Shown here: piece by piece, positions 5,343 to 56,318 of the stretch
How the letters are laid out: each line of letters opens with the position of its first letter
How positions within the stretch are numbered: position 1 is the stretch's first letter
Origin: Mycobacterium sp. SMC-4
Lineage (GTDB): Bacteria > Actinomycetota > Actinomycetes > Mycobacteriales > Mycobacteriaceae
Length of the DNA: 64,000 nt
Direction: 5' to 3'
Assembly (NCBI RefSeq): GCF_025263265.1
Contig: NZ_CP079869.1
Span: 4,650,001 to 4,714,000, forward strand
Translations under genes and position numbers: made by a program
Notes under the pieces: model-generated
Databases searched by the model: none
What the model was told of the DNA's origin: nothing
Seen by the model: only the letters and a program-made list of their open reading frames with translations

Positions 5343-6350
5343 GTGTCGAAAGACCTGACCGACCTGCAGCTGTTGACCGAGCTCGAGCCCGTCGTCGAGC
5401 CGCTGGTCAACCGCCACATGCAGATGAAGAAGGACTGGAACCCGCACGACTACATCCCGTGGTCCGACGGTAAGAACTACTACGCCCTCGGCGGCCAGGA
5501 CTGGGACATCGAGCAGTCGAAGCTCTCCGAGGTCGCCCGCGTCGCGATGCTGACAAACCTGCTCACCGAGGACAACCTGCCGTCCTATCACCGCGAGATC
5601 GCGATGAACTTCAGCATGGACGGCCCGTGGGGCTTCTGGGTCAACCGCTGGACCGCCGAGGAGAACCGCCACGGCATCGCGCTGCGCGACTACCTCGTCG
5701 TCACCCGCAACGTCGACCCCGTCGAACTCGAGATGCTGCGCATCGAGCAGATGACGCGTGGCTTCTCCCCCGGCCAGAACCAGCAGGGCGGCATCGAACT
5801 GTTCGCCGAGAGCCTCTTCGACTCGGTGATCTATGTGACGTTCCAGGAGCTTGCGACCCGCGTCTCACACCGCAACACCGGCAAGGCGTGTGAGGACCCG
5901 ATCGCCGACCAACTGCTGCAGCGCGTGTCGGCCGACGAGAACCTGCACATGATCTTCTACCGGGACGTGTCCGAAGCCGGTTTCGAGATCGCGCCGAATC
6001 AGGCGATGAAGTCCCTGCACAAGGTGCTGCGCAACTTCAAGATGCCCGGTTACACCATCCCGGATTTCCGTCGTCGTGCGGTGACGATCGCCTCGGGCGG
6101 TGTGTACGACCCGAAGATCCACCTCGACGACATCGTCTTGCCGGTGCTGAAGAAGTGGCGCATCTTCGAACGCGAGGACTTCAACGGCGAGAGCGCACGC
6201 ATGCGCGACGACCTCGGTCTCCTCATCGAGGAGCTGCAGGAAGCCGTCGACAAGTTCGAGGTCGCCAAACAGCGCCGCGAGCAACGTCTCCGTCAGATGG
6301 CCGAGAAGAAGGCGGCCAAGGCCCAGCTGGTGGGATCATCAGCCTCGTAA
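5343..6350 (+). CDS. desA1: Acyl-ACP desaturase DesA1
   Basis: This 335-residue soluble diiron desaturase introduces a double bond into acyl-ACP, in mycobacteria linked to mycolic-acid synthesis. The iron-binding motifs are present: an early Glu in LPSYHREI, EENRHG, Glu in FQELATRVSHRNTG, and DENLH. Length matches the DesA1 family, and the tail is a charged Lys/Arg/Glu helix. The GTG start at 5343 follows GGGAGG. A Dus gene follows with a one-base-shifted overlap at the stop, so the two are probably co-transcribed. Confidence 0.92.
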   Translation: MSKDLTDLQLLTELEPVVEPLVNRHMQMKKDWNPHDYIPWSDGKNYYALGGQDWDIEQSKLSEVARVAMLTNLLTEDNLPSYHREIAMNFSMDGPWGFWVNRWTAEENRHGIALRDYLVVTRNVDPVELEMLRIEQMTRGFSPGQNQQGGIELFAESLFDSVIYVTFQELATRVSHRNTGKACEDPIADQLLQRVSADENLHMIFYRDVSEAGFEIAPNQAMKSLHKVLRNFKMPGYTIPDFRRRAVTIASGGVYDPKIHLDDIVLPVLKKWRIFEREDFNGESARMRDDLGLLIEELQEAVDKFEVAKQRREQRLRQMAEKKAAKAQLVGSSAS

Positions 6351-17720: not shown

Positions 17721-17810
17721 GTGTCAGCCCGCCTCGAGCTTGTGCTCACCAAGCGCCGCGCAGTCGATCTGTGCCGCGTTGCGGGTTGTTGCTGTTGTTG
17801 TTGCTGCTGA
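17721..17810 (+). CDS. Polycysteine leader peptide (Cys-responsive attenuator)
   Basis: This is a 29-residue reading frame that starts GTG and ends TGC/TGT repeated: residues 23-29 are seven consecutive Cys, plus Cys 18. It has no ribosome-binding site and begins at the expected transcription start, so it is leaderless. Published work on mycobacteria shows such polycysteine leaders attenuate downstream sulfur genes: when Cys-tRNA is short, ribosomes stall and expression rises. Hairpins follow at 17826-17861. Confidence 0.85.
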   Translation: MSARLELVLTKRRAVDLCRVAGCCCCCCC

Positions 17811-17898: not shown

Positions 17899-17970
17899 AT
17901 GCCGGAGATCACCACCACCGGGAGCAGGACCGCGCCCGTTACGTCCGGCCTGCCCGTCTCTCGCACCTAA
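17899..17970 (+). CDS. Small ORF (23 aa) in the cysA leader
   Basis: MPEITTTG... ending SRT* is a 23-residue frame with a good ribosome-binding site (AGGAG at 17887-17891, 7 nt before ATG). An in-frame ATG at 17875 would give 31 residues. The peptide is Thr/Pro rich with no membrane segment. It lies between the Cys leader and cysA, and may couple translation to cysA. Function unknown. Confidence 0.5.
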   Translation: MPEITTTGSRTAPVTSGLPVSRT

Positions 17971-18001
17971 CCGCCCCCAACAGAACCGGAAGGACCCATT
18001 T

Positions 18002-18835
18002 ATGGCACGCTCCGACGTCCTGGTCTCAGTCGACTGGGCCGAGAGCAATCTCGACGCACCGAACACCGTCTTCGTCGAGGTCGACGAAGACACCAGCGCC
18101 TACGACACCGGCCACATCCCCGGCGCCGTCAAGCTCGACTGGAAGACCGATCTGCAGGATCAGGTGCGGCGCGACTTCGTCGACGCCGAGCAGTTCTCGA
18201 AGCTGCTCAGCGAGCGCGGCATCGCCAACGACGACACCGTGGTGCTCTACGGCGGTAACAACAACTGGTTCGCGGCCTACGCCTATTGGTACTTCAAGCT
18301 GTACGGCCACGCCGACGTCAAGTTGCTCGACGGCGGCCGCAAGAAGTGGGAGCTCGACGCTCGCCCGCTGTCGACCGACAAGGTCGAGCGCCCGACCACC
18401 AGCTACACCGCCAAGGCTCCCGACACCAGCATCCGCGCGTTCCGCGACGAGGTGATCGACGCGATCGGCCAGAAGAACCTCGTCGACGTGCGCTCCCCTG
18501 ACGAGTTCTCCGGCAAGATCCTCGCTCCCGCGCACCTGCCGCAGGAGCAGAGCCAGCGCCCGGGGCATATCCCGGGCGCCATCAACGTTCCGTGGAGCAA
18601 GGCCGCCAACGAAGACGGCACCTTCAAGTCCGACGAGGACCTGGCCAAGCTGTACGCCGAGGCCGGCCTGGACGGTGAGAAGGAGACGATTGCCTACTGC
18701 CGGATCGGTGAGCGTTCGTCGCACACCTGGTTCGTGCTGCAGGAGATCCTCGGACACAAGAATGTCAAGAACTACGACGGCAGTTGGACCGAATACGGCT
18801 CCCTGGTGGGGGCCCCGATCGAGTTGGGAAGTTGA
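18002..18835 (+). CDS. cysA: Thiosulfate sulfurtransferase (rhodanese)
   Basis: This 277-residue tandem rhodanese has an inactive N-terminal domain and a catalytic C-terminal domain with Cys 233 in the loop YCRIGERSSHTW. It transfers sulfane sulfur from thiosulfate-type donors to acceptors. GGAAGGA precedes the ATG. It is followed one base later by sseC, the usual mycobacterial pair, and sits behind the Cys-responsive leader. Confidence 0.93.
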   Translation: MARSDVLVSVDWAESNLDAPNTVFVEVDEDTSAYDTGHIPGAVKLDWKTDLQDQVRRDFVDAEQFSKLLSERGIANDDTVVLYGGNNNWFAAYAYWYFKLYGHADVKLLDGGRKKWELDARPLSTDKVERPTTSYTAKAPDTSIRAFRDEVIDAIGQKNLVDVRSPDEFSGKILAPAHLPQEQSQRPGHIPGAINVPWSKAANEDGTFKSDEDLAKLYAEAGLDGEKETIAYCRIGERSSHTWFVLQEILGHKNVKNYDGSWTEYGSLVGAPIELGS

Positions 18836-18836
18836 T

Positions 18837-19139
18837 ATGTGCTCTGCACCGAAGCAAGGACTGACGTTGCCCGCCGGCGTCGACCTGGAGAAGGAAACGG
18901 TGATCACCGGTCGAGTCGTGGACGGCTCAGGTCAAGCGGTCGGCGGCGCGTTCGTCCGGCTGCTGGACAGCTCCGACGAGTTCACCGCCGAGGTTGTCGC
19001 GTCGGCCACCGGTGACTTCCGGTTCTTCGCCGCTCCGGGCACCTGGACGCTGCGGGCCCTGTCGCCGGCAGGCAACGGCGATGCCAGCGTGGCACCGTCG
19101 GGTGCCGGCATCCACGAGGTCGACGTCAAGGTCGCCTAG
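18837..19139 (+). CDS. sseC: SseC family protein (DUF1416)
   Basis: This 100-residue protein begins MCSAPKQGLTLPAG and folds as a beta-sandwich like carboxypeptidase regulatory domains (VITGRVVDGSGQAVGGAFVRLLD, GDFRFFAAPGTWTLRA). It is always next to the rhodanese gene in mycobacteria and is presumed to act in sulfur metabolism, but the biochemical role is not established. It starts 1 bp after cysA. Confidence 0.85.
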   Translation: MCSAPKQGLTLPAGVDLEKETVITGRVVDGSGQAVGGAFVRLLDSSDEFTAEVVASATGDFRFFAAPGTWTLRALSPAGNGDASVAPSGAGIHEVDVKVA

Positions 19140-19218
19140 CACTGCCAGGGTTCACCGGGTGTTGCGCTGATCTTGCTGTGAAAGTGCTGCGAGTTCGGCG
19201 TTGGTCGACGACGATATG

Positions 19219-19249
19219 GTGACGCCCGCGCCGCTCGGCGCGGGGTCAC
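19219..19249 (+). terminator. Hairpin terminator after cysA-sseC
   Basis: GTGAC-g-CCCGCGCC, loop GCTC, GGCGCGGG-GTCAC: a 13-bp stem with one bulged base, 80 bp past the sseC stop. There is no U tract; the actinobacterial type of terminator is plausible. Confidence 0.55.
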
Positions 19250-19288
19250 TGACCCGGCACACCGCCGCGGCTAGCTCGAGGACCCGAC

Positions 19289-19609
19289 ATGAAGATCACG
19301 TTTGCCTGCGCTGCAGCCACGCTGCTCGCCGGATCCGCTCTGTTCAGTGCCCCCACGGCGCTCGCGGACCCGGAGGGTGATTTCCTGTCCGTGATCGCCG
19401 ACTACGGCATCACCTGGCCGTCGGACAAGACTGCCCAGGTCATCGAAACCGGGTATGCGGTCTGCCAGGACTGGGTCAACGGCGCCACGTTCGAGCAGGA
19501 AGTCCTCGAACTGGCCGGCGCGACGGGCTGGCCGAACGCCGATGCGGGCTATTTCATCGGTGCCGCCACCGGCGCGTTCTGCCCCGAGTTCGAGTACAAG
19601 GTCGGCTGA
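19289..19609 (+). CDS. Secreted DUF732 protein
   Basis: This is a 106-residue protein with a Sec signal peptide (cleavage likely after Ala 26) and a DUF732 domain: helices around FLSVIADYGITWPSDKTAQVIETGYAVCQ and a closing Cys-containing helix. The two Cys are likely disulfide-bonded. DUF732 proteins are common and secreted in mycobacteria; their role is unknown. Confidence 0.8.
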   Translation: MKITFACAAATLLAGSALFSAPTALADPEGDFLSVIADYGITWPSDKTAQVIETGYAVCQDWVNGATFEQEVLELAGATGWPNADAGYFIGAATGAFCPEFEYKVG

Positions 19610-19630
19610 ACGACGGCCCACTGCGGCAGT

Positions 19631-19636
19631 TAGACT
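19631..19636 (+). promoter_or_regulatory. -10 box ahead of the tiny membrane protein
   Basis: TAGACT ends 7 nt before the GTG at 19644; no ribosome-binding site is present. A leaderless start is likely. Confidence 0.4.
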
Positions 19637-19643
19637 TTCCGCC

Positions 19644-19742
19644 GTGGTGCTGTTCTTCGAGATCCTGCTCGTCGCGGCCGTCGTGGTGATCACCTGGTTC
19701 GCGCTCTACGCGTTGTATCGCCTGGTCACCGACGAGTCGTGA
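19644..19742 (+). CDS. Tiny single-pass membrane protein (32 aa)
   Basis: [18 protein letters not shown]... ends in TDES: almost the whole peptide is one hydrophobic helix with a short charged tail. It is preceded by a TAGACT -10 box at leaderless distance, and its TGA overlaps the GTG of the nitrobindin-like gene (GTGA), which supports real translation. It could anchor a partner or be a coupling peptide for the next gene. Confidence 0.65.
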
Positions 19743-20368
19743 GTTCCGGCGACGAGGCGGTGGCCGCCGCGGCCCAGCGAGCCAGGGAGACCTCAGCGCG
19801 CAACATTCCGGCGTTCACCGACCTCCCGCTGCCGGTCGACACCGCGAACCTGCGCCAGGGAGCCGACCTCAACAACGCACTACTGGCACTGTTGCCCCTG
19901 GTCGGTGTGTGGCGCGGTGAGGGTGAGGGTCGCGGCACCCATGGCGACTACCGGTTTGGACAGCAGATCGTGGTGTCCCACGACGGTGGGGACTACCTGA
20001 ACTGGGAGGCCCGGTCCTGGTTGCTGACCGAGGACGGCGACTATGACCGTCCGGGTCTGCGCGAGACCGGATACTGGCGATTCGTCACCGACCCGGCCGA
20101 TCCCGGCGAGTCCCAGGCCATCGAGCTGCTGCTGGCCCACTCTGCCGGCTACATCGAGTTGTTCTACGGTCGGCCGCTGAACCAGTCGTCGTGGGAGTTG
20201 GTCACCGACGCACTGGCACGCAGCAAATCCGGGATGCTCGTCGGCGGCGCCAAGCGGCTCTACGGAATCATCGAGGGCGGCGACCTGGCCTACGTCGAGG
20301 AACGCGTCGACGCCGACGGCGGCCTGGTTCCGCACCTGTCGGCCCGGCTGTCCCGGTTCGTCGGCTGA
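19739..20368 (+). CDS. Nitrobindin-like beta-barrel protein (FABP-like)
   Basis: This is a 209-residue protein of the nitrobindin / THAP4-like family, a ten-stranded barrel. The lid motif GVWRGEGEG (near residue 58), [21 protein letters not shown] and the C-terminal [10 protein letters not shown] strand are visible. True nitrobindins bind haem through a C-terminal His; a His is present in PHLSARL but I cannot confirm it is the ligand. It is coupled to the tiny membrane gene upstream and overlaps the lipoprotein gene downstream (TGATG). Confidence 0.8.
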
Positions 20369-20634
20369 TGCACCCGCTTCGGATTGTCGCGGTGATCGCC
20401 GCCGCGGGTGCTGTGCTCGTCGGCTGCGGTTCGCCCGCCGAGTCTCCGGCCCCGTCGAGCCCTAGCCCGACCCAGCCGACCGAGAGTCACGGGTCCTACG
20501 CGTCGTGTCTGGATCGCCATGGAGTACCCGCGCCCCCGGGGCCGGTGTCCGGACCCCCGCCCGGGATCGATGCCGCCACCTGGGAGTCCGCGATGGCTGA
20601 GTGTTCGGAGCTGGCTCCGGGCCCGGCCGGCTGA
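20368..20634 (+). CDS. Small lipoprotein (88 aa)
   Basis: A signal peptide ends in lipobox LVGC (Cys 20). The mature chain is Ser/Pro rich, then contains YASCLDRHGVPAPPG and a short helix with a second Cys (AMAECSEL), likely a disulfide-closed mini-domain. The ATG overlaps the previous stop (TGATG), so it is the last gene of this run. No function can be assigned. Confidence 0.75.
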   Translation: MHPLRIVAVIAAAGAVLVGCGSPAESPAPSSPSPTQPTESHGSYASCLDRHGVPAPPGPVSGPPPGIDAATWESAMAECSELAPGPAG

Positions 20635-20650
20635 TCCCAGAGACGGGACA

Positions 20651-20699
20651 GCCCCCGAGCCGTGATCCTCGGTCGGACACAACCGAGGGGCTCGGGGGC
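20651..20699. terminator. Large nested hairpin (terminator, both strands)
   Basis: The outer stem is 11 bp, GCCCCCGAGCC/GGCTCGGGGGC. Inside, CCTCGGT/ACCGAGG makes a further 7-bp stem with a small side bulge. It sits 17 bp after the lipoprotein stop and is also the natural 3' end of the minus-strand transcript starting near 20827. Confidence 0.7.
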
Positions 20700-20760
20700 C
20701 GGGTGACTGCGGGGAATTCGCCAGCGCGCGCAGGTGTGCGTCAAGCGCTCCCCGGCGCTG

Positions 20761-20799
20761 CTAGCTCGCAGCCACCTCACATGTCCATAAGTCACTCAA
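20761..20799 (-). CDS. Possible 12-codon micro-ORF in the short transcript
   Basis: TTG start, then SDLWTCEVAAS and TAG. AGGAGG lies 12 nt upstream, a little far. The frame contains rare-type residues Trp and Cys, as leader peptides often do. A frame starting at GTG 20795 runs on through the terminator hairpin and is less likely. Confidence 0.3.
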   Translation of the reverse strand: MSDLWTCEVAAS

Positions 20800-20833
20800 T
20801 TTGTCGGACCACCTCCTTCCCTGTGTACAGGCG

Positions 20834-20862
20834 AAGGTACCCGCGCATGGTCAGCGCGACAA
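20834..20862 (-). promoter_or_regulatory. SigA-type promoter for the short minus-strand transcript
   Basis: TTGTCG (20862-20857), a 17-bp spacer and TACCTT (20839-20834). The spacing is ideal and both boxes fit mycobacterial SigA promoters. Confidence 0.55.
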
Positions 20863-20875
20863 GGGATTTACTCTG

Positions 20876-21757
20876 TCAGCGATCGCTGAGTACGGCGGCG
20901 TCGATCAGCGCGGCGATGTCGGCGGCGTCCGCCGCGGCCGGCAGCGCGACCCCGTCGAGGGTGTGCACCCGGGCCGCCAACGTGATGCTCGACACCAGCC
21001 AAACCCCTTGCGCAGCAAGCAGATCAGCCCGCGTGAGGGCCTGATAGTCGCAGTCGTAGCCGGCGTTGCGCGCCACCTCGAACAGGGCCTGCTGGGTGGT
21101 GCCGCGCAGAATCGGATACCAGGGCGGCGGGGTCAGCAGGCACCGTCGGCCCTCGTCGGAGACCGTGGCGATGACCACCGTCGATCGCGGCCCCTCCAGG
21201 ATCAATCCGTCGGTGCTGACGAAGATCACGTCCCCGGCGCCGTGCGCCTCGGCATGCCGCAGCGCGGCCATGTTCACCGCATAGGACAACGTCTTGGCGC
21301 CCGCCAGCAGCCACGGCAGGTCGTCGATGCCGTGCGCGGCCAGACCGCGCGACAAGGTCAGCGCCGCCAGGCCGCAGCGTCGGACCTCGGCGACACGCGC
21401 CGGAACCGGCCCGATGGTGGCGTAGGCGGTAGCGCCGGAGTCGTTTTCCCGGCCCCGGCTGTACACCAGCCGCAGCACACCGTCCTCATTCCCGGCCCCG
21501 ACCCAGGCGTCCACCGCGACTGCCACTGCGCGGCGCCACCGGGCCGGGTCCGGCGCCGGCAGGTCCACCAGGCGCGCCGAATGCGACAACCGGCCCAGGT
21601 GGGCGTCGAGCAGACAGGGTCCGCCGTCGCGGACGAGCATGGTCTCGAAGATTCCGTCACCGCGCACCGCGGCGAGATCGTCGGCATAGAGCAGCGGGAC
21701 GCTGGGATCGTGCAACGTCCCGTCCAGTGTGACCACGACTGCGGGTCGGTCGCTCAT
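20876..21757 (-). CDS. pabC: 4-amino-4-deoxychorismate lyase-like class IV aminotransferase
   Basis: This 293-residue PLP enzyme of fold type IV has catalytic Lys 155 in AGAKTLSYAVNM, the RGDGIFETM start of the family, and the cofactor Glu in LILEGPRSTVVI. PabC splits aminodeoxychorismate to p-aminobenzoate and pyruvate for folate synthesis. Branched-chain or D-amino-acid aminotransferases share the fold, so the assignment rests on overall resemblance. The ATG at 21757 follows a TACGCT -10 box by 8 nt. It is divergent from ygfZ, a folate-binding protein. Confidence 0.8.
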   Translation of the reverse strand: MSDRPAVVVTLDGTLHDPSVPLLYADDLAAVRGDGIFETMLVRDGGPCLLDAHLGRLSHSARLVDLPAPDPARWRRAVAVAVDAWVGAGNEDGVLRLVYSRGRENDSGATAYATIGPVPARVAEVRRCGLAALTLSRGLAAHGIDDLPWLLAGAKTLSYAVNMAALRHAEAHGAGDVIFVSTDGLILEGPRSTVVIATVSDEGRRCLLTPPPWYPILRGTTQQALFEVARNAGYDCDYQALTRADLLAAQGVWLVSSITLAARVHTLDGVALPAAADAADIAALIDAAVLSDR

Positions 21758-21765
21758 GGGGCATG

Positions 21766-21802
21766 AGCGTAGCCGCAGCAATATCGGCTCGAACCGTAGA
21801 GT
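21766..21802. promoter_or_regulatory. Divergent promoters of pabC and ygfZ
   Basis: The 51-bp gap holds two -10 boxes: TACGCT on the minus strand (21771-21766, 8 nt before pabC) and TAGAGT on the plus strand (21797-21802, 6 nt before ygfZ). Both transcripts would be leaderless or nearly so. Confidence 0.45.
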
Positions 21803-21808
21803 TGAGCC

Positions 21809-22882
21809 ATGTCCGCTGTTCCCGCCCCTGATCCAGGTCCCGATGCCGGTGCCGTCTGGCACTATGGCGATCCGCTCGGTGAGCAGCGCAGCGCCGCGCA
21901 GGCAGCCGTCGTCGTCGATCGGTCGCATCGCGGTGTGCTCAGGCTGACCGGAGCCGAACGCAAGACCTGGTTGCACAGCATCTCCACCCAGCACGTCAGC
22001 GAGCTCGCCGACGGCGCTGTCACCCAGAACCTCAGCCTCGACGGGCAGGGCCGGGTGGAGGATCACTGGTTGCAGGCCGAAGTCGACGATCAGACCGTGG
22101 TGGACACCGAGCCGTGGCGGGCCGAGCCGCTGCTGGCTTACCTGCGCCGGATGGTCTTCTGGTCCGATGTGGCAATCGAGCCGGCCGAGTACGGCGTGCT
22201 GTCGCTGCTGGGTCCTGCGGTCACCGAACCCGCCGCACTCGGGGTGCTCGGACTGACCGCACCACCCGTCGACGGCACCGCGGTGGCGCTGGATGGCGGC
22301 GGATTCGCGCGCCGGTTGACCTCCAGTGGGGCCGACCTCGACCTCGTCGTTCCCCGCACCGACCGTGCCCGCTGGTGGGAGCGCCTGGTTGCCGCCGGTG
22401 TGCGACCGGCCGGTGTCTGGGCTTTCGAAGCCCACCGGGTGGCCGCGGTCGTGCCCCGCTTGGGTCTCGATACCGACGAGCGCACCATTCCGCACGAGGT
22501 GGGCTGGATCGGACCGGCGGTGCACCTGGACAAGGGCTGCTATCGCGGCCAGGAGACCGTTGCCCGAGTGCACAACCTCGGCAAACCGCCCCGGATGCTG
22601 GTGCTGCTGCATCTCGACGGCAGCACCGACCGTCCTTCGCCCGGAGATCCGCTACTGGCCGCAGGCCGCTCCGTCGGCCGGTTGGGCACCGTGGTCGACC
22701 ACGTCGACGACGGTGCGATCGCGCTGGCGCTGGTCAAGCGTGGATTACCGGCGGATACGGAGCTGACCACCGGCGGCCAGGTGGCCACCGCGGCAGCCAT
22801 CGATGCCGATTCCGTTCCGGCCACCGAGTCGGTTGGGGCCGGCCGGCTGGCGGTGGAGCGGTTGCGTAGCGGAACTAAGTGA
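21809..22882 (+). CDS. ygfZ: Folate-binding YgfZ/GcvT-like protein
   Basis: This 357-residue protein shares the GcvT aminomethyltransferase fold and carries the YgfZ signature KGCYRGQETVAR with Cys 244. YgfZ proteins use tetrahydrofolate to support assembly or repair of certain Fe-S enzymes. Pairing with pabC ties it to folate. The ATG at 21809 is 6 nt after a TAGAGT box. Confidence 0.88.
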   Translation: MSAVPAPDPGPDAGAVWHYGDPLGEQRSAAQAAVVVDRSHRGVLRLTGAERKTWLHSISTQHVSELADGAVTQNLSLDGQGRVEDHWLQAEVDDQTVVDTEPWRAEPLLAYLRRMVFWSDVAIEPAEYGVLSLLGPAVTEPAALGVLGLTAPPVDGTAVALDGGGFARRLTSSGADLDLVVPRTDRARWWERLVAAGVRPAGVWAFEAHRVAAVVPRLGLDTDERTIPHEVGWIGPAVHLDKGCYRGQETVARVHNLGKPPRMLVLLHLDGSTDRPSPGDPLLAAGRSVGRLGTVVDHVDDGAIALALVKRGLPADTELTTGGQVATAAAIDADSVPATESVGAGRLAVERLRSGTK

Positions 22883-22942
22883 GTACGCCCACAAAACGCC
22901 GCCAGGGTTCAGGGCCTGCCAGCGCCACGGCCTTCGGCACGG

Positions 22943-22948
22943 TAAGGT
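22943..22948 (+). promoter_or_regulatory. Candidate -10 box for the DUF3073 gene
   Basis: TAAGGT about 80 nt upstream of the DUF3073 ATG; the resulting leader contains two hairpins. Confidence 0.3.
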
Positions 22949-22976
22949 GTCAGCAGGACAATAAACACATTCAGAT

Positions 22977-23028
22977 CGGAGCCGCCTAGTCATTGGGCCG
23001 CTCCGTTATTGCGCGAGGGGGTTCCCCC
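22977..23028 (+). promoter_or_regulatory. Structured 5' leader of the DUF3073 gene
   Basis: The first hairpin is CGGAGC/GCTCCG (22977-23005) with inner GCC/GGC pairs. The second, GGGGG-TT-CCCCC (23017-23028), uses the ribosome-binding purines as its 5' arm and abuts the ATG, so the ribosome-binding site would be masked when it folds. Confidence 0.4.
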
Positions 23029-23247
23029 ATGGGCCGCGGCCGGGCAAAGGCAAAGCAGACCAAGGTTGCACGTGAGCTCAAGTACAGCTCACCCCAAACC
23101 GACTTCGAGCGGCTTCAGCGCGAGCTGTCGGGCTCGACCAGCGATGACCGCTTCGGTGGCGGCTTCAACGGCACGTTGGAGGGCACCGTGGACGGTGACA
23201 GCGCGTCAGATGACGCCTGGGTCGAAGAGGACGACTGGCGCCGATAG
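23029..23247 (+). CDS. DUF3073 protein
   Basis: This 72-residue actinobacterial protein begins MGRGRAKAKQTKVARELKYSSP, a strongly basic head, then an acidic tail ending in EEDDWRR. The polarity suggests contact with nucleic acid or ribosomes, but no function is established. The ATG at 23029 is chosen because the conserved family start is MGRGRAK; a longer start upstream would add a non-conserved piece. Confidence 0.85.
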   Translation: MGRGRAKAKQTKVARELKYSSPQTDFERLQRELSGSTSDDRFGGGFNGTLEGTVDGDSASDDAWVEEDDWRR

Positions 23248-23280
23248 GCTCGGCTCTTCTCGGCCCCCGCGCCACACCCG

Positions 23281-24366
23281 CTAGAACCTGGGGTGTTGCC
23301 CCACCAGAACGGCACGGACAGTGTCCTTCCCGCTGTCCTTGCCACCCTTTTCGATGGTTCCCAGGGTCCAGCAGCTCAGGTGGCGAGCGGTCAGCACGGC
23401 CAACGCGCGATCAGTGTCCTCCGGCGCGACGACGGCCACCATGCCGACGCCCATGTTGAACGTCCGCTCCATCTCGGCCCGCTCGATGCGGCCGCGCTGC
23501 GCGATCATGCCGAACACCGGTGCCGGCGTCCAGGTGCCGCGGTCGAGGTGGGCCACCAGACCGTGCGGGATGACCCGCTCCAGGTTGCCCGCCAGGCCGC
23601 CGCCGGTGACGTGGCAGAACGTGCGGACCTGAGTTTCTGCGGCCAGCGCCAGACAGTCTTTGGCGTAGATGCGGGTGGGTTCGAGCAGTTCCTCACCCAG
23701 CGTGCGCCCGAATTCCTCGACGTGACCCGCCAAATTCATGTGGTCGATCTCCAGCAGCACGTGGCGGGCCAGTGAATACCCGTTGGAGTGCAGGCCGGTC
23801 GAGGCCATCGCGATGATCACGTCGCCCGGTTTGACCCGGTCGGGGCCCAGCACATCGTCGGCCTCGACCACGCCGATACCGGTGGCCGAGATGTCGTAGT
23901 GGTCCGGCGCCATCAAACCCGGGTGCTCGGCCGTCTCACCGCCCAACAGCGCGCATCCGGCCTGCACACAGCCGTCGGCGATGCCCGACACCAACTCGGC
24001 GACCCGCTCGGGAACGGTACGGCCGACGGCGATGTAGTCCTGCAGGAACAGCGGTTCGGCACCGCAGACCACCAGGTCGTCGACCACCATCGCGACCAGG
24101 TCGATGCCAACCGTGTCGTGCTTGTCCATCGCCTGGGCCACCGCCAGCTTGGTGCCGACCCCGTCGGTCGAGGACGCCAGCAGCGGCTCACGGTAGTCCC
24201 CGCGCAGGGCGAACAACCCGGCAAAACCGCCCAGGCCACCCCGCACCTCGGGCCGGGTGGCCTTCTGAGCCAGCGGTTTGAACAGTTCGACGGCGCGGTC
24301 ACCGGCCTCGATGTCCACTCCCGCCGACGCGTAGGAAATGCCGTGCTGTTCGGCGCGATCGGTCAT
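23281..24366 (-). CDS. purM: Phosphoribosylformylglycinamidine cyclo-ligase PurM
   Basis: This 361-residue PurM makes AIR from FGAM with ATP (step 5 of purine synthesis). Motifs include the GGFAGLF loop, STDGVGTKLAVA, GGETAEHPG and MASTGLHSNGYSLAR. The ATG at 24366 gives the standard N-terminus (ISYASAGVDIEAGD); a TAACCT -10 box ends 8 nt upstream. It follows purF in the same direction with one plus-strand gene between. Confidence 0.95.
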   Translation of the reverse strand: MTDRAEQHGISYASAGVDIEAGDRAVELFKPLAQKATRPEVRGGLGGFAGLFALRGDYREPLLASSTDGVGTKLAVAQAMDKHDTVGIDLVAMVVDDLVVCGAEPLFLQDYIAVGRTVPERVAELVSGIADGCVQAGCALLGGETAEHPGLMAPDHYDISATGIGVVEADDVLGPDRVKPGDVIIAMASTGLHSNGYSLARHVLLEIDHMNLAGHVEEFGRTLGEELLEPTRIYAKDCLALAAETQVRTFCHVTGGGLAGNLERVIPHGLVAHLDRGTWTPAPVFGMIAQRGRIERAEMERTFNMGVGMVAVVAPEDTDRALAVLTARHLSCWTLGTIEKGGKDSGKDTVRAVLVGQHPRF

Positions 24367-24467
24367 CGGCCCCAAGGTTACCGCCCGCGCGCCGGTGTCG
24401 AACTGCCGGATTAGGGCAATCCTGGTCGGCATCGGCTCCGAACACGGGGCAGTGATCGGAGGAAGAC

Positions 24468-25445
24468 ATGTCGGCTGAGCAGACCACGTGCCTGGTGACC
24501 GGTGCCACCGGCTACATCGGCGGCCACCTCGTTCCCAAACTGCTCGAGAAAGGTTTCGCCGTGCGCGCAATGGCGCGCACGCCGGCCAAGCTCGACGATG
24601 CACCGTGGCGTTCCGACGTCGAGGTGGTGCGGGGCGATCTCACTGATGCGGACTCCCTGGCTGCGGCGTTCGACGGGGTCGACGTCGTCTACTACCTGGT
24701 GCATTCGATGGGCACCTCGCGTGACTTCGTCGCCGAGGAGGCTCGTTCGGCGCGCAACGTGGTGGCGGCTGCGCAGCAGGCCGGGATCAAGCGCGTGGTC
24801 TATCTCGGCGGTTTGCACCCCGAAGGCGCGGATCTGTCCCGCCATCTGGCCTCGCGCGTGGAGGTCGGTGAGATCCTGATGGGTTCTCCGGTGGAGACGG
24901 TGGTGCTGCAGGCCGGAATCGTCATCGGCTCGGGTTCGGCGTCCTTCGAGATGGTCCGGCATCTGACCGACCGGCTGCCGTTGATGACGACCCCCAAGTG
25001 GGTGCACAACAAGATTCAGCCGATCTCCGTCGACGACGTGCTGCATTACCTCGCCGAGTCTGCGACAGCCCCGGTGCCGCGCTCGCGCACCTGGGATGTC
25101 GGCGGCCCCGATGTGATGGAGTACGGCGAGGCGATGCAGACCTACGCCGAGATCGCCGGGCTGTCCCGCCGTGTGATGGTGGTGCTGCCGTTCCTGACAC
25201 CGACGATCGCCAGTCTCTGGGTCGGGCTGGTGACCCCCATCCCGGCCGGGCTGGCCCGACCGCTGGTGGAATCGCTGGAATGCGACGCGATCGCCCACGA
25301 ACACGACATCGACGAGGTGATCGCGCCCCCGCCCGGCGGCCTGACGGGGTACCGCGAGGCTGTCGAGCAGGCGTTGCAGGAAGGGGGCACCGCGGCCTCG
25401 GGCGGACGTCGCCGCTGGCTACGGTTCAGCCCGGCTCACAGCTAG
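24468..25445 (+). CDS. NAD(P)-binding SDR-type (NmrA-like) protein
   Basis: This 325-residue atypical SDR has the Rossmann motif TGATGYIGGHL near residue 11, GDLTDADSLAAAFDGVDVVYYLVHSMG, then a C-terminal substrate domain. It lacks a clear YxxxK pair at the usual place, so it may be an NmrA-like sensor or an epimerase-type enzyme. GGAGGA precedes the ATG. It sits between purM and purF on the opposite strand. Substrate unknown. Confidence 0.75.
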   Translation: MSAEQTTCLVTGATGYIGGHLVPKLLEKGFAVRAMARTPAKLDDAPWRSDVEVVRGDLTDADSLAAAFDGVDVVYYLVHSMGTSRDFVAEEARSARNVVAAAQQAGIKRVVYLGGLHPEGADLSRHLASRVEVGEILMGSPVETVVLQAGIVIGSGSASFEMVRHLTDRLPLMTTPKWVHNKIQPISVDDVLHYLAESATAPVPRSRTWDVGGPDVMEYGEAMQTYAEIAGLSRRVMVVLPFLTPTIASLWVGLVTPIPAGLARPLVESLECDAIAHEHDIDEVIAPPPGGLTGYREAVEQALQEGGTAASGGRRRWLRFSPAHS

Positions 25446-55049: not shown

Positions 55050-56318
55050 TCACAGAAAGACTCGTCCTTCGGCCGCGGCCAGCCCGATGTCACTGCGAAA
55101 GTGCGCTCCGGGCAAGCGGATTGCGCTGATCGTGGCGTAGGCGTCAGCACGGGCAGCAGCCAGGTCGGCGCCGGTGCCCACCACCGAGAGCACCCTGCCA
55201 CCGGAGGACACCACCGCGCCGTCGGCTCGCCGGGCAGTTCCGGCGTGCAATACGCCCTCGTGGTCGGCGCCGCTGATGACGTCTCCGACCCGGGGTCGCC
55301 CGGGGTAGTTCTCGGCGGCGAGCACCACCGCGACAGCCGAGCCGTCCCGCCATTGCAGCGGCGGCACATCGTCCAACCGACCCGTCGCCGCGGCCAGCAT
55401 CAGCTGTCCCAGCGGCGAGTCCAGCAGCGCCAGCACGGCTTGGGTTTCGGGGTCGCCGAAGCGGCAGTTGAACTCGACGACAGCCGGGCCGTCCGCGGTG
55501 ATGGCCAAACCTGCATACAGCAGGCCGCGGAACGGGCAATCGCGTCGAACCAGTTCAGCCGCAACGGGTTTGACGACCTCGTCAACGATCCGACGGGTCA
55601 TCTCGTCAGGCAGCCATGGCAACGGCGTGTAGGCACCCATGCCACCGGTGTTGGGACCGGTGTCACCGTCACCGACCCGCTTGAAATCCTGCGCGGGCAA
55701 CAGGGGCACCACGGTGTGCCCGTCGACGACACAGAACAGCGACACCTCGGGGCCGTCGAGGAATGATTCGAGCAGTACCGGATGCCCCGCCTCGAGCAGC
55801 CCGGCGGCGTGTGAGCGGGCGGCGGCGCGGTCGGCGCTGACCACGACGCCCTTGCCGGCCGCCAGTCCGTCGTCCTTGACCACCCAGGCGCGTTGGCCGG
55901 CGGCGGGTCCGAACCGGTCCAGCGCGGCGTCGAGGTGTCCCGGGTTGTCCACGATCTCGCTGGTGGCGGTGCGGACACCGGCACTGGTCATAACATCTTT
56001 GGCGAATGCCTTGGACCCCTCGATGCGAGCTGCGTCGCGGGTGGGACCGAAGCACGCGATGCCGGCGTCACGCACCGCGTCGGCCACCCCCAACACCAGC
56101 GGCACCTCCGGACCGACAACCACCAGGTCGGCGCCGACCCGCCGGGCCAGGGCCGTCACCTCCTCCCCGGAGGTGACGTCGACGTCGTACTGGTCGGCCA
56201 CAGCCGCGGTCCCGGCGTTGCCGGGCGCCACCGACAGGCCGTCGACCTGCGGGTCGCGCCGCAACGCCAGCAGCAGCGCATGTTCACGGGCTCCGGATCC
56301 GATTACCAGGACGTGCAC
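55050..56318 (-). CDS. purD: Phosphoribosylamine-glycine ligase PurD
   Basis: This 422-residue ATP-grasp enzyme makes GAR from phosphoribosylamine and glycine (step 2). It has [33 protein letters not shown], and [20 protein letters not shown] ATP-grasp residues. It is the last purine gene of the window. Confidence 0.95.

What the first reader, a model, noticed from the sequence alone, without database searches (positions are those of the whole stretch)
20651..20862. Self-contained minus-strand micro-transcript with an anti-16S leader
Between the lipoprotein and pabC genes the minus strand shows, in order, TTGTCG-N17-TACCTT, an RNA start near 20827, AAGGAGGTGGTCC complementary over 13 nt to the 16S rRNA 3' end (one G-U), a 12-codon TTG frame (S-D-L-W-T-C-E-V-A-A-S), a foldable GGGGA/TTCCCC stretch, and an 18-bp nested hairpin that can terminate it. 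All parts of a gene are present in 210 bp with no annotated product. It could be an sRNA titrating ribosomes, a leader-peptide sensor (Trp and Cys codons), or a micro-protein.
Basis: partly seen in the sequence, partly recalled or inferred. Interest (0 to 1): 0.75.

Follow-up and report, generated by a model that had tools for sequence, protein, structure and literature searches.

The report
Ribosome-docking small RNA of actinobacteria
The 210-base stretch is a small RNA gene that is already listed in a public RNA catalogue without a known function; comparing it across actinobacteria shows a tiny reading frame whose position is kept while its peptide is not, which suggests that being translated is what matters for this RNA.

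Summary
The feature is real and catalogued: window 20643-20826 (minus) matches Rfam RF02471, Ms_IGR-5, an actinobacterial sRNA without a described function, at 180 bits. New here: (1) spread: 161 of 246 class genomes over Rfam's cut-off, 102 of 246 phylum genomes with a 5'-domain model; (2) 273 of 273 RNAs compared have a micro-ORF of 10-19 codons between a leader antisense to the 16S tail and a stop 8-12 nt after GAGGUG. Starts vary (TTG, ATG, GTG, CTG, ATT/ATC/ATA, ACG); in four copies the frame is shifted relative to GAGGUG, changing the peptide but keeping start-to-stop framing; (3) ORF nucleotides pair with the segment before the terminal hairpin (P2) and with its loop (pseudoknot), with compensatory changes. 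Neighbours vary, so it is not a leader. Trp/Cys sensing and a functional microprotein are unlikely. Best reading: a stand-alone structured micro-mRNA that docks or senses ribosomes. The function is inferred, not shown.

The parts
20857..20862 (-). -35 element TTGTCG
   Evidence: TTG at 16-19 nt from TANNNT in 85 of 96 diverse class RNAs
20834..20839 (-). -10 element TACCTT
   Evidence: TANNNT in 96 of 96
20643..20826 (-). sRNA Ms_IGR-5 (RF02471), whole RNA
   Evidence: 180.2 bits, model positions 1-184
20806..20821 (-). SD1: leader antisense to the 16S rRNA 3' tail, 16 nt with G-U (13-nt core AAGGAGGTGGTCC at 20818-20806)
   Evidence: 16 nt in 191 of 201 class RNAs and 68 of 72 phylum-set RNAs
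20761..20799 (-). 12-codon micro-ORF TTG...TAG
   Evidence: frame found in 201 of 201 and 72 of 72 RNAs, loop-shuffle control
20782..20786 (-). GGACA in codons 5-6, pseudoknot strand (can also pair with GUCC of SD1, P1)
   Evidence: pseudoknot; P1, weak
20773..20778 (-). SD2: GAGGTG, 9 nt before the stop codon
   Evidence: spacing; pairing to the 16S tail (its invariance is partly by construction of the regex)
20767..20776 (-). P2 5' strand GGTGGCTGCG
20702..20711 (-). P2 3' strand CGCAGTCACC
20720..20765 (-). P3 hairpin, holds most of the stop codon (predicted; co-variation not tested)
   Evidence: fold; also in the Rfam structure line
20712..20719 (-). internal-loop segment GAATTCCC
   Evidence: GAAT(N)CC in 145 of 201 class and 49 of 72 phylum-set RNAs (shuffled means 7.2 and 2.9)
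20649..20701 (-). P4 nested hairpin, terminator-like
20675..20679 (-). TGTCC in the apical part of P4, pseudoknot partner of GGACA

Best explanation
It is the stand-alone sRNA gene Ms_IGR-5 (RF02471). Supported by sequence comparison: its own promoter, a leader antisense to the whole 16S rRNA tail (SD1), a micro-ORF, an SD-like GAGGUG (SD2) 9 nt before the stop, an ORF-tail helix (P2) and a pseudoknot between mid-ORF codons and the loop of the terminal hairpin (P4); a hairpin over the stop codon (P3) is predicted. Inferred: ribosomes load strongly through SD1; decoding the short ORF must open the pseudoknot, P2 and P3, because ORF nucleotides form them; at the stop codon SD2 sits at normal SD spacing from the P site and can hold the terminating ribosome. 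The RNA would thus have a free folded state and a ribosome-held state, and its job would be to dock or count ribosomes (translation-state sensor or decoy), with the peptide a by-product. Which partner reads the state is unknown.
For: Rfam match. Conserved promoter. ORF frame in 273 of 273 RNAs when eight start codons are allowed (loop-shuffled means 55.3 of 201 and 17.0 of 72); with ATG/GTG/TTG only, 200 of 201 and 49 of 72 (shuffled 24.7 and 6.7). Start and stop codons vary within their kinds. Frame shifted in four phylum-set RNAs with start-to-stop framing kept. P2 co-variation at pairs 5, 7, 8, 9. Pseudoknot co-variation: own complement present in 174 of 266 (shuffled mean 88.9, max 112), phylum set 52 of 68 (mean 22.9, max 33); base next to GGAC Watson-Crick in 44 of 85 (27.9 shuffled, 0 of 5000 as high); GGAU cores have AUCC loops in 5 of 7, GGAC cores in 2 of 175. 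In 29 phylum-set RNAs whose core is not GGAC/T the 4 nt after GGAGGTG stay GTCC (23), ATCC (5) or GTCG (1), pointing to the 16S tail as their constraint. Published, passages seen: ribosome-protected reads in M. abscessus and M. smegmatis (PMC4974804); RNA-seq support in S. lividans (PMC8079986); an sRNA transcription unit in S. avermitilis (PMC8780764).
Against: No expression, footprint position or phenotype was measured here. PMC4974804 itself warns that ribosome-protected reads fall on non-coding RNAs. An unrestricted search for a core-to-downstream helix gave no signal in the class set (5.28 against 5.19 swapped), core and loop being nearly invariant there. Rfam's own structure line lacks P2 and pairs SD1 with the ORF tail instead; that helix pairs in 91.8% of cells but shows no two-sided change, so it is a possible alternative state. 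P1 has weak support. Four copies (L260, L284, L297, L304) seem to lack the pseudoknot loop (read by eye). Loci were collected with models or patterns that contain SD1 and the ORF region, so invariance of those letters is partly by construction. No shuffle corrects for relatedness.
Confidence: 0.55

Rival explanations
1. Anti-SD titrator: an abundant RNA masks the 16S tail and shifts translation from SD-led to leaderless mRNAs; the ORF only helps loading or turnover.
For: 16-nt complementarity to the 16S tail in 191 of 201 and 68 of 72 RNAs; promoter strongly kept; S. coelicolor has about 21% leaderless mRNAs (PMC4895711, abstract passage).
Against: A pure decoy needs no in-frame start and stop, yet these are found in 273 of 273. 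RNA abundance relative to ribosomes is unknown.
Confidence: 0.2
2. Ordinary trans-acting antisense sRNA: unpaired segments pair with mRNAs; ribosome contact is incidental.
For: Own transcription unit, Rfam sRNA class, variable neighbours.
Against: Does not explain kept start, frame and stop codons or the shifted-frame copies. No targets were sought here.
Confidence: 0.15
3. The 12-codon product is a functional microprotein.
For: Codons 5-12 look conserved within the class (about [RW]T[RC]EV[AT][AV][RS]).
Against: Codons 2-4 vary freely; codon 7 is Arg, Cys, Ser or Gly; GAG and GTG show no synonymous change, as RNA constraint would give (GAGGT was fixed by the regex); four deep copies encode an unrelated peptide because the frame is shifted.
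Confidence: 0.05
4. Leader-peptide attenuator sensing Trp or Cys for a downstream gene.
For: TGG and TGT codons in the window copy; a thiosulfate-sulfurtransferase-like gene pair (cysA/sseC, names recalled) lies about 2 kb away on the other strand.
Against: Nearest downstream gene call is antisense in 78 and co-oriented in 38 of the 116 loci that had one (120 examined), and its family varies (heuristic gene calls); Trp and Cys codons are not kept.
Confidence: 0.03

Closest known systems
Rfam RF02471 Ms_IGR-5
   Same: Same RNA, end to end, 180 bits
   Different: Rfam's structure line has neither P2 nor the pseudoknot and pairs SD1 with the ORF tail; copies were found here below Rfam's cut-off too
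Dual-function sRNAs such as SgrS and RNAIII (recalled)
   Same: An sRNA carrying a small ORF
   Different: There the peptide itself acts; here its sequence is not kept
tmRNA (recalled)
   Same: Stand-alone, pseudoknotted RNA with a short ORF that engages ribosomes
   Different: ARAGORN calls no tmRNA in the window and Rfam gives only RF02471 here
Leader-peptide attenuators (recalled)
   Same: Short ORF overlapping alternative RNA helices next to a terminator-like hairpin
   Different: No constant downstream gene

Membership tests
RF02471 Ms_IGR-5 | Covariance-model score above the gathering score (45 bits) | tested here: met
   180.2 bits, whole model
RF02471 Ms_IGR-5 | Expressed as a separate small transcript | not testable with these tools
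   No RNA data here; published for relatives (passages)
Leader-peptide attenuator | Co-oriented regulated gene downstream, kept across species | tested here: not met
   78 antisense, 38 co-oriented, 4 none of 120 loci; varied families; heuristic gene calls
Leader-peptide attenuator | Kept codons for the sensed amino acid | tested here: not met
Dual-function sRNA with active peptide | Peptide sequence under selection | tested here: not met
tmRNA | tRNA-like domain and tag ORF | tested here: not met
   ARAGORN lists 4 tRNAs and no tmRNA in the window
Anti-SD titrating RNA | Long complementarity to the 16S tail | tested here: met
   tail letters found in 4 of 8 assemblies
Anti-SD titrating RNA | Abundance comparable to ribosomes | not testable with these tools
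   no expression data

The most novel reading that the evidence does not exclude
A phylum-wide class of RNA whose function is to be translated, not to make a peptide: two SD elements bracket a micro-ORF so that a ribosome is loaded, drawn through a pseudoknotted fold and held at the stop codon, making the RNA a global ribosome sensor or dock in Actinomycetota.
Probability: 0.3. Interest if true: 0.9.

Novelty: new variant of a known kind. Interest (0 to 1): 0.7.

Why it matters
The RNA is kept in about two thirds of the class genomes sampled (161 of 246), mycobacteria and streptomycetes included, yet the passages seen in the 3 held papers that name Ms_IGR-5 list it or report reads on it and give no function. 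The anatomy found here gives testable parts (start codon, SD2, pseudoknot, P2) and suggests that the act of translation, rather than the peptide, is what selection keeps. If so, it would be a general link between ribosome state and gene control in a phylum with many leaderless mRNAs (about 21% in S. coelicolor, PMC4895711 abstract).

Tried and rejected
Leader or attenuator: rejected on neighbourhoods. Trp/Cys sensing and microprotein: rejected on codon variation and the shifted-frame copies. P1 hairpin (GUCC with GGAC round the start codon): weak, and its partner is lost where the core changes while SD1 stays, so treated as optional. Rfam's SD1-to-ORF-tail helix: compatible with the letters but no two-sided changes; neither supported nor excluded. 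An unrestricted helix search between core and downstream DNA gave no signal in the class set (5.28 against 5.19) and a modest one in the phylum set (5.61 against 5.15); the position-specific and core-type tests replaced it. Viral contigs: 0 matches to the core pattern. RNA polymerase RIP-seq paper: 0 occurrences of IGR, pabC or scr3974. Papers: searches listed none that I saw to describe the ORF or pseudoknot; most listed papers were not opened, and supplements could not be read. S. coelicolor Ribo-seq reports 31 of 230 sRNAs occupied by ribosomes (PMC4895711, passages); whether this RNA is among them could not be seen.

Rows dropped: of 215 sequences (214 loci and the window), L150-L153 failed the regex; the other 211 gave 201 distinct RNAs. 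L150-L153 were read apart and also hold a 12-codon ORF. Of 74 loci L231-L304, L237 (class-type) and L291 (no regex hit) were left out, leaving 72; not every place was fetched. P2: 95 of 96 diverse RNAs gave a partner. Pseudoknot: 3 of 201 RNAs were lost and 16 of 198 had no loop motif; one search kept core types seen 3 times or more (266 of 269 RNAs).

Full report
Identity. A scan of the window against Rfam finds RF02471, Ms_IGR-5, at 20643-20826 on the minus strand, 180.2 bits against a gathering score of 45 (alignment). No whole genome is held for the window. Against the 55 pattern-matched loci, window 17901-24700 aligns best by score with L031, a Mycolicibacterium sp. (77.5% over 3948 bases), and most closely over a long piece with L029, M. 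chubuense (90.7% over 1153).

What is published, as seen here. Ms_IGR-5 is named in 3 papers of the library; I read passages, and section 9 of one. S. lividans: listed as RNA-seq validated (PMC8079986). S. avermitilis: one of two sRNA transcription units, out of 139, that matched Rfam; such units were built by linking mapped transcript starts and ends (PMC8780764). M. abscessus and M. smegmatis: ribosome-protected reads over the homologue, with a caution that non-coding RNAs can show them (PMC4974804 section 9). None of these passages describes an ORF, a pseudoknot or 16S complementarity. The accession RF02471 appears in one paper.

Spread. With the Rfam model 83 of 121 genomes of the family and 161 of 246 of the class pass the cut-off, nearly all of the listed ones with one match; 14 control genomes give none. 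A 71-position model of the 5' domain (alignment, model) finds 102 of 246 phylum genomes at E 0.001 or better. Ten divergent loci were scanned against Rfam at E up to 0.05: six matched RF02471, two of them at or above its cut-off; L240, L264, L275 and L285 did not.

Promoter. In 96 diverse class RNAs TANNNT occurs 18-8 nt before the RNA start in 96, and TTG lies 16-19 nt upstream of it in 85; shuffled upstreams give 7.7 and 0.3.

Leader. GGGAAGGAGGTGGTCC can pair with the whole 16S tail GGATCACCTCCTTTCT over 16 nt with three G-U pairs. Sixteen nt hold in 191 of 201 class RNAs and 68 of 72 phylum-set RNAs. The tail was recalled and then found, with GGCT before it, in 4 of 8 relatives' assemblies (the others may lack rRNA in draft form). 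In the window one other stretch reaches 13 nt (56156-56168 minus). In 29 phylum-set RNAs whose mid-ORF core is no longer GGAC/T, the 4 nt after GGAGGTG remain GTCC, ATCC or GTCG (23, 5, 1), so pairing with the core (P1) does not explain them and the 16S tail may.

Micro-ORF. Among 201 distinct class RNAs the start position holds TTG 129, ATG 47, GTG 20, ATT 1, with 4 shifted by one codon; the stop position holds TAG 183, TAA 9, TGA 8, with 1 a codon later. Counting any correctly spaced start of eight codons, 201 of 201 class and 72 of 72 phylum-set RNAs have a frame that ends 8-12 nt after GAGGTG; 23 of the 72 use CTG, ATA, ATC, ATT or ACG. Shuffling only the loop between SD1 and the core gives 55.3 of 201 and 17.0 of 72 with the eight starts, and 24.7 and 6.7 for ATG/GTG/TTG against 200 and 49 observed. 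Codons 2-4 are free. GAG and GTG never change, but the regex fixed GAGGT, so this is partly by construction. The telling case is L260, L284, L297 and L304: there the frame is displaced relative to GAGGTG, so the peptide is unrelated (Q-Q-D-C-G-G-G-S-S after the start in L260), yet start and stop stay in one frame. The 5'-domain model covers the ORF, so hits were partly chosen for it; the downstream pseudoknot partner is outside the model.

Second SD. GAGGTG lies 9 nt before the stop in 268 of 273 RNAs, 8 in four and 12 in one. It can pair 6-8 nt with the 16S tail by Watson-Crick pairs. A ribosome with the stop codon in its A site would have this element at normal SD spacing from the P-site codon; that is inference from geometry. 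An ATG/GTG/TTG 4-12 nt after it is rare in the class (5 of 201) and present in 12 of 72 of the phylum set, so re-initiation is not the general use.

Fold. P2: codons 8-11 pair with the segment just before the terminal hairpin. With the partner located by the following hairpin and the letters ACC rather than by complementarity (95 of 96), pairs 5, 7, 8 and 9 co-vary (0, 0, 1 and 0 of 2000 shuffles reach the observed count); pairs 4 and 6 do not beat shuffles, and pairs 1-3 are fixed by that choice. P3 covers most of the stop codon and was not tested for co-variation. Rfam's drawing pairs SD1 with the ORF tail in place of P2; on 87 sequences that helix pairs in 91.8% of cells with no two-sided change, so it may be an alternative state in which SD1 is hidden. 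Pseudoknot: GGAC plus the next base in codons 5-6 pairs with the loop of P4. In the diverse set the extra base is Watson-Crick in 44 of 85 (27.9 shuffled, 0 of 5000 as high). The flanking positions show no excess there (7 against 11.0; 29 against 24.4, 635 of 5000); in all 182 RNAs the base before GGAC shows a slight one (71 against 60.1, 171 of 5000). Over core types, RNAs contain the complement of their own core in 174 of 266 cases (88.9 shuffled), and in the phylum set in 52 of 68 (22.9 shuffled): AGACC with GGTCT 7 of 9, CGACC with GGTCG 7 of 7, TGACC with GGTCA 4 of 4, GTATC with GATAC 4 of 5. Background is high in the class rows: GGTCG, for example, occurs in 38 of 106 GGACA-type RNAs. 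An unrestricted search was uninformative in the class set. Relatedness is not corrected for in any of these shuffles.

Context. In 120 loci with heuristic gene calls the next gene downstream is antisense in 78, co-oriented in 38 and absent in 4, with families that vary (nitrobindin-like 29, PdxH-like 18, MFS transporter-like 6 and others); upstream neighbours vary too. Apart from the window genes, family names are my reading of the sequences. The RNA is a gene of its own.

Mechanism. Strong loading at SD1, obligatory melting of the pseudoknot, P2 and P3 by a translating ribosome, and a possible hold at the stop by SD2 make a two-state RNA that reports or captures ribosomes. The parts rest on comparison; every functional step is inferred. 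I put 0.55 on this reading, with anti-SD titration (0.2) and an ordinary antisense sRNA (0.15) as main rivals.

Noticed in passing
window 17721-17810, plus strand: A 29-codon GTG frame ending in seven Cys codons and TGA, 191 bp upstream of the gene starting at 18002; it looks like the poly-cysteine leader peptide of cysteine-responsive attenuation (recalled, not checked). An earlier count gave its place one base off.
   Followed up: partly
window 5661-5728, minus strand: Rfam ASdes match of 83 bits; its DNA was read but not analysed further.
   Followed up: no
L150-L153: Divergent copies with a 12-codon ORF, an enlarged SD2 (AAGGAGGTG in L152), a following CCACCT that could pair with it, and no evident pseudoknot loop, read by eye.
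   Followed up: partly
L257-L259, L264, L271, L272, L274, L290, L296, L302-L304: Copies whose in-frame start at the expected spacing is ATT, ATC or ATA, non-canonical starts of the kind that initiation factor 3 discriminates against (recalled).
   Followed up: partly
window 56156-56168, minus strand: The only other stretch in the window with 13 nt of pairing to the 16S tail; not examined.
   Followed up: no
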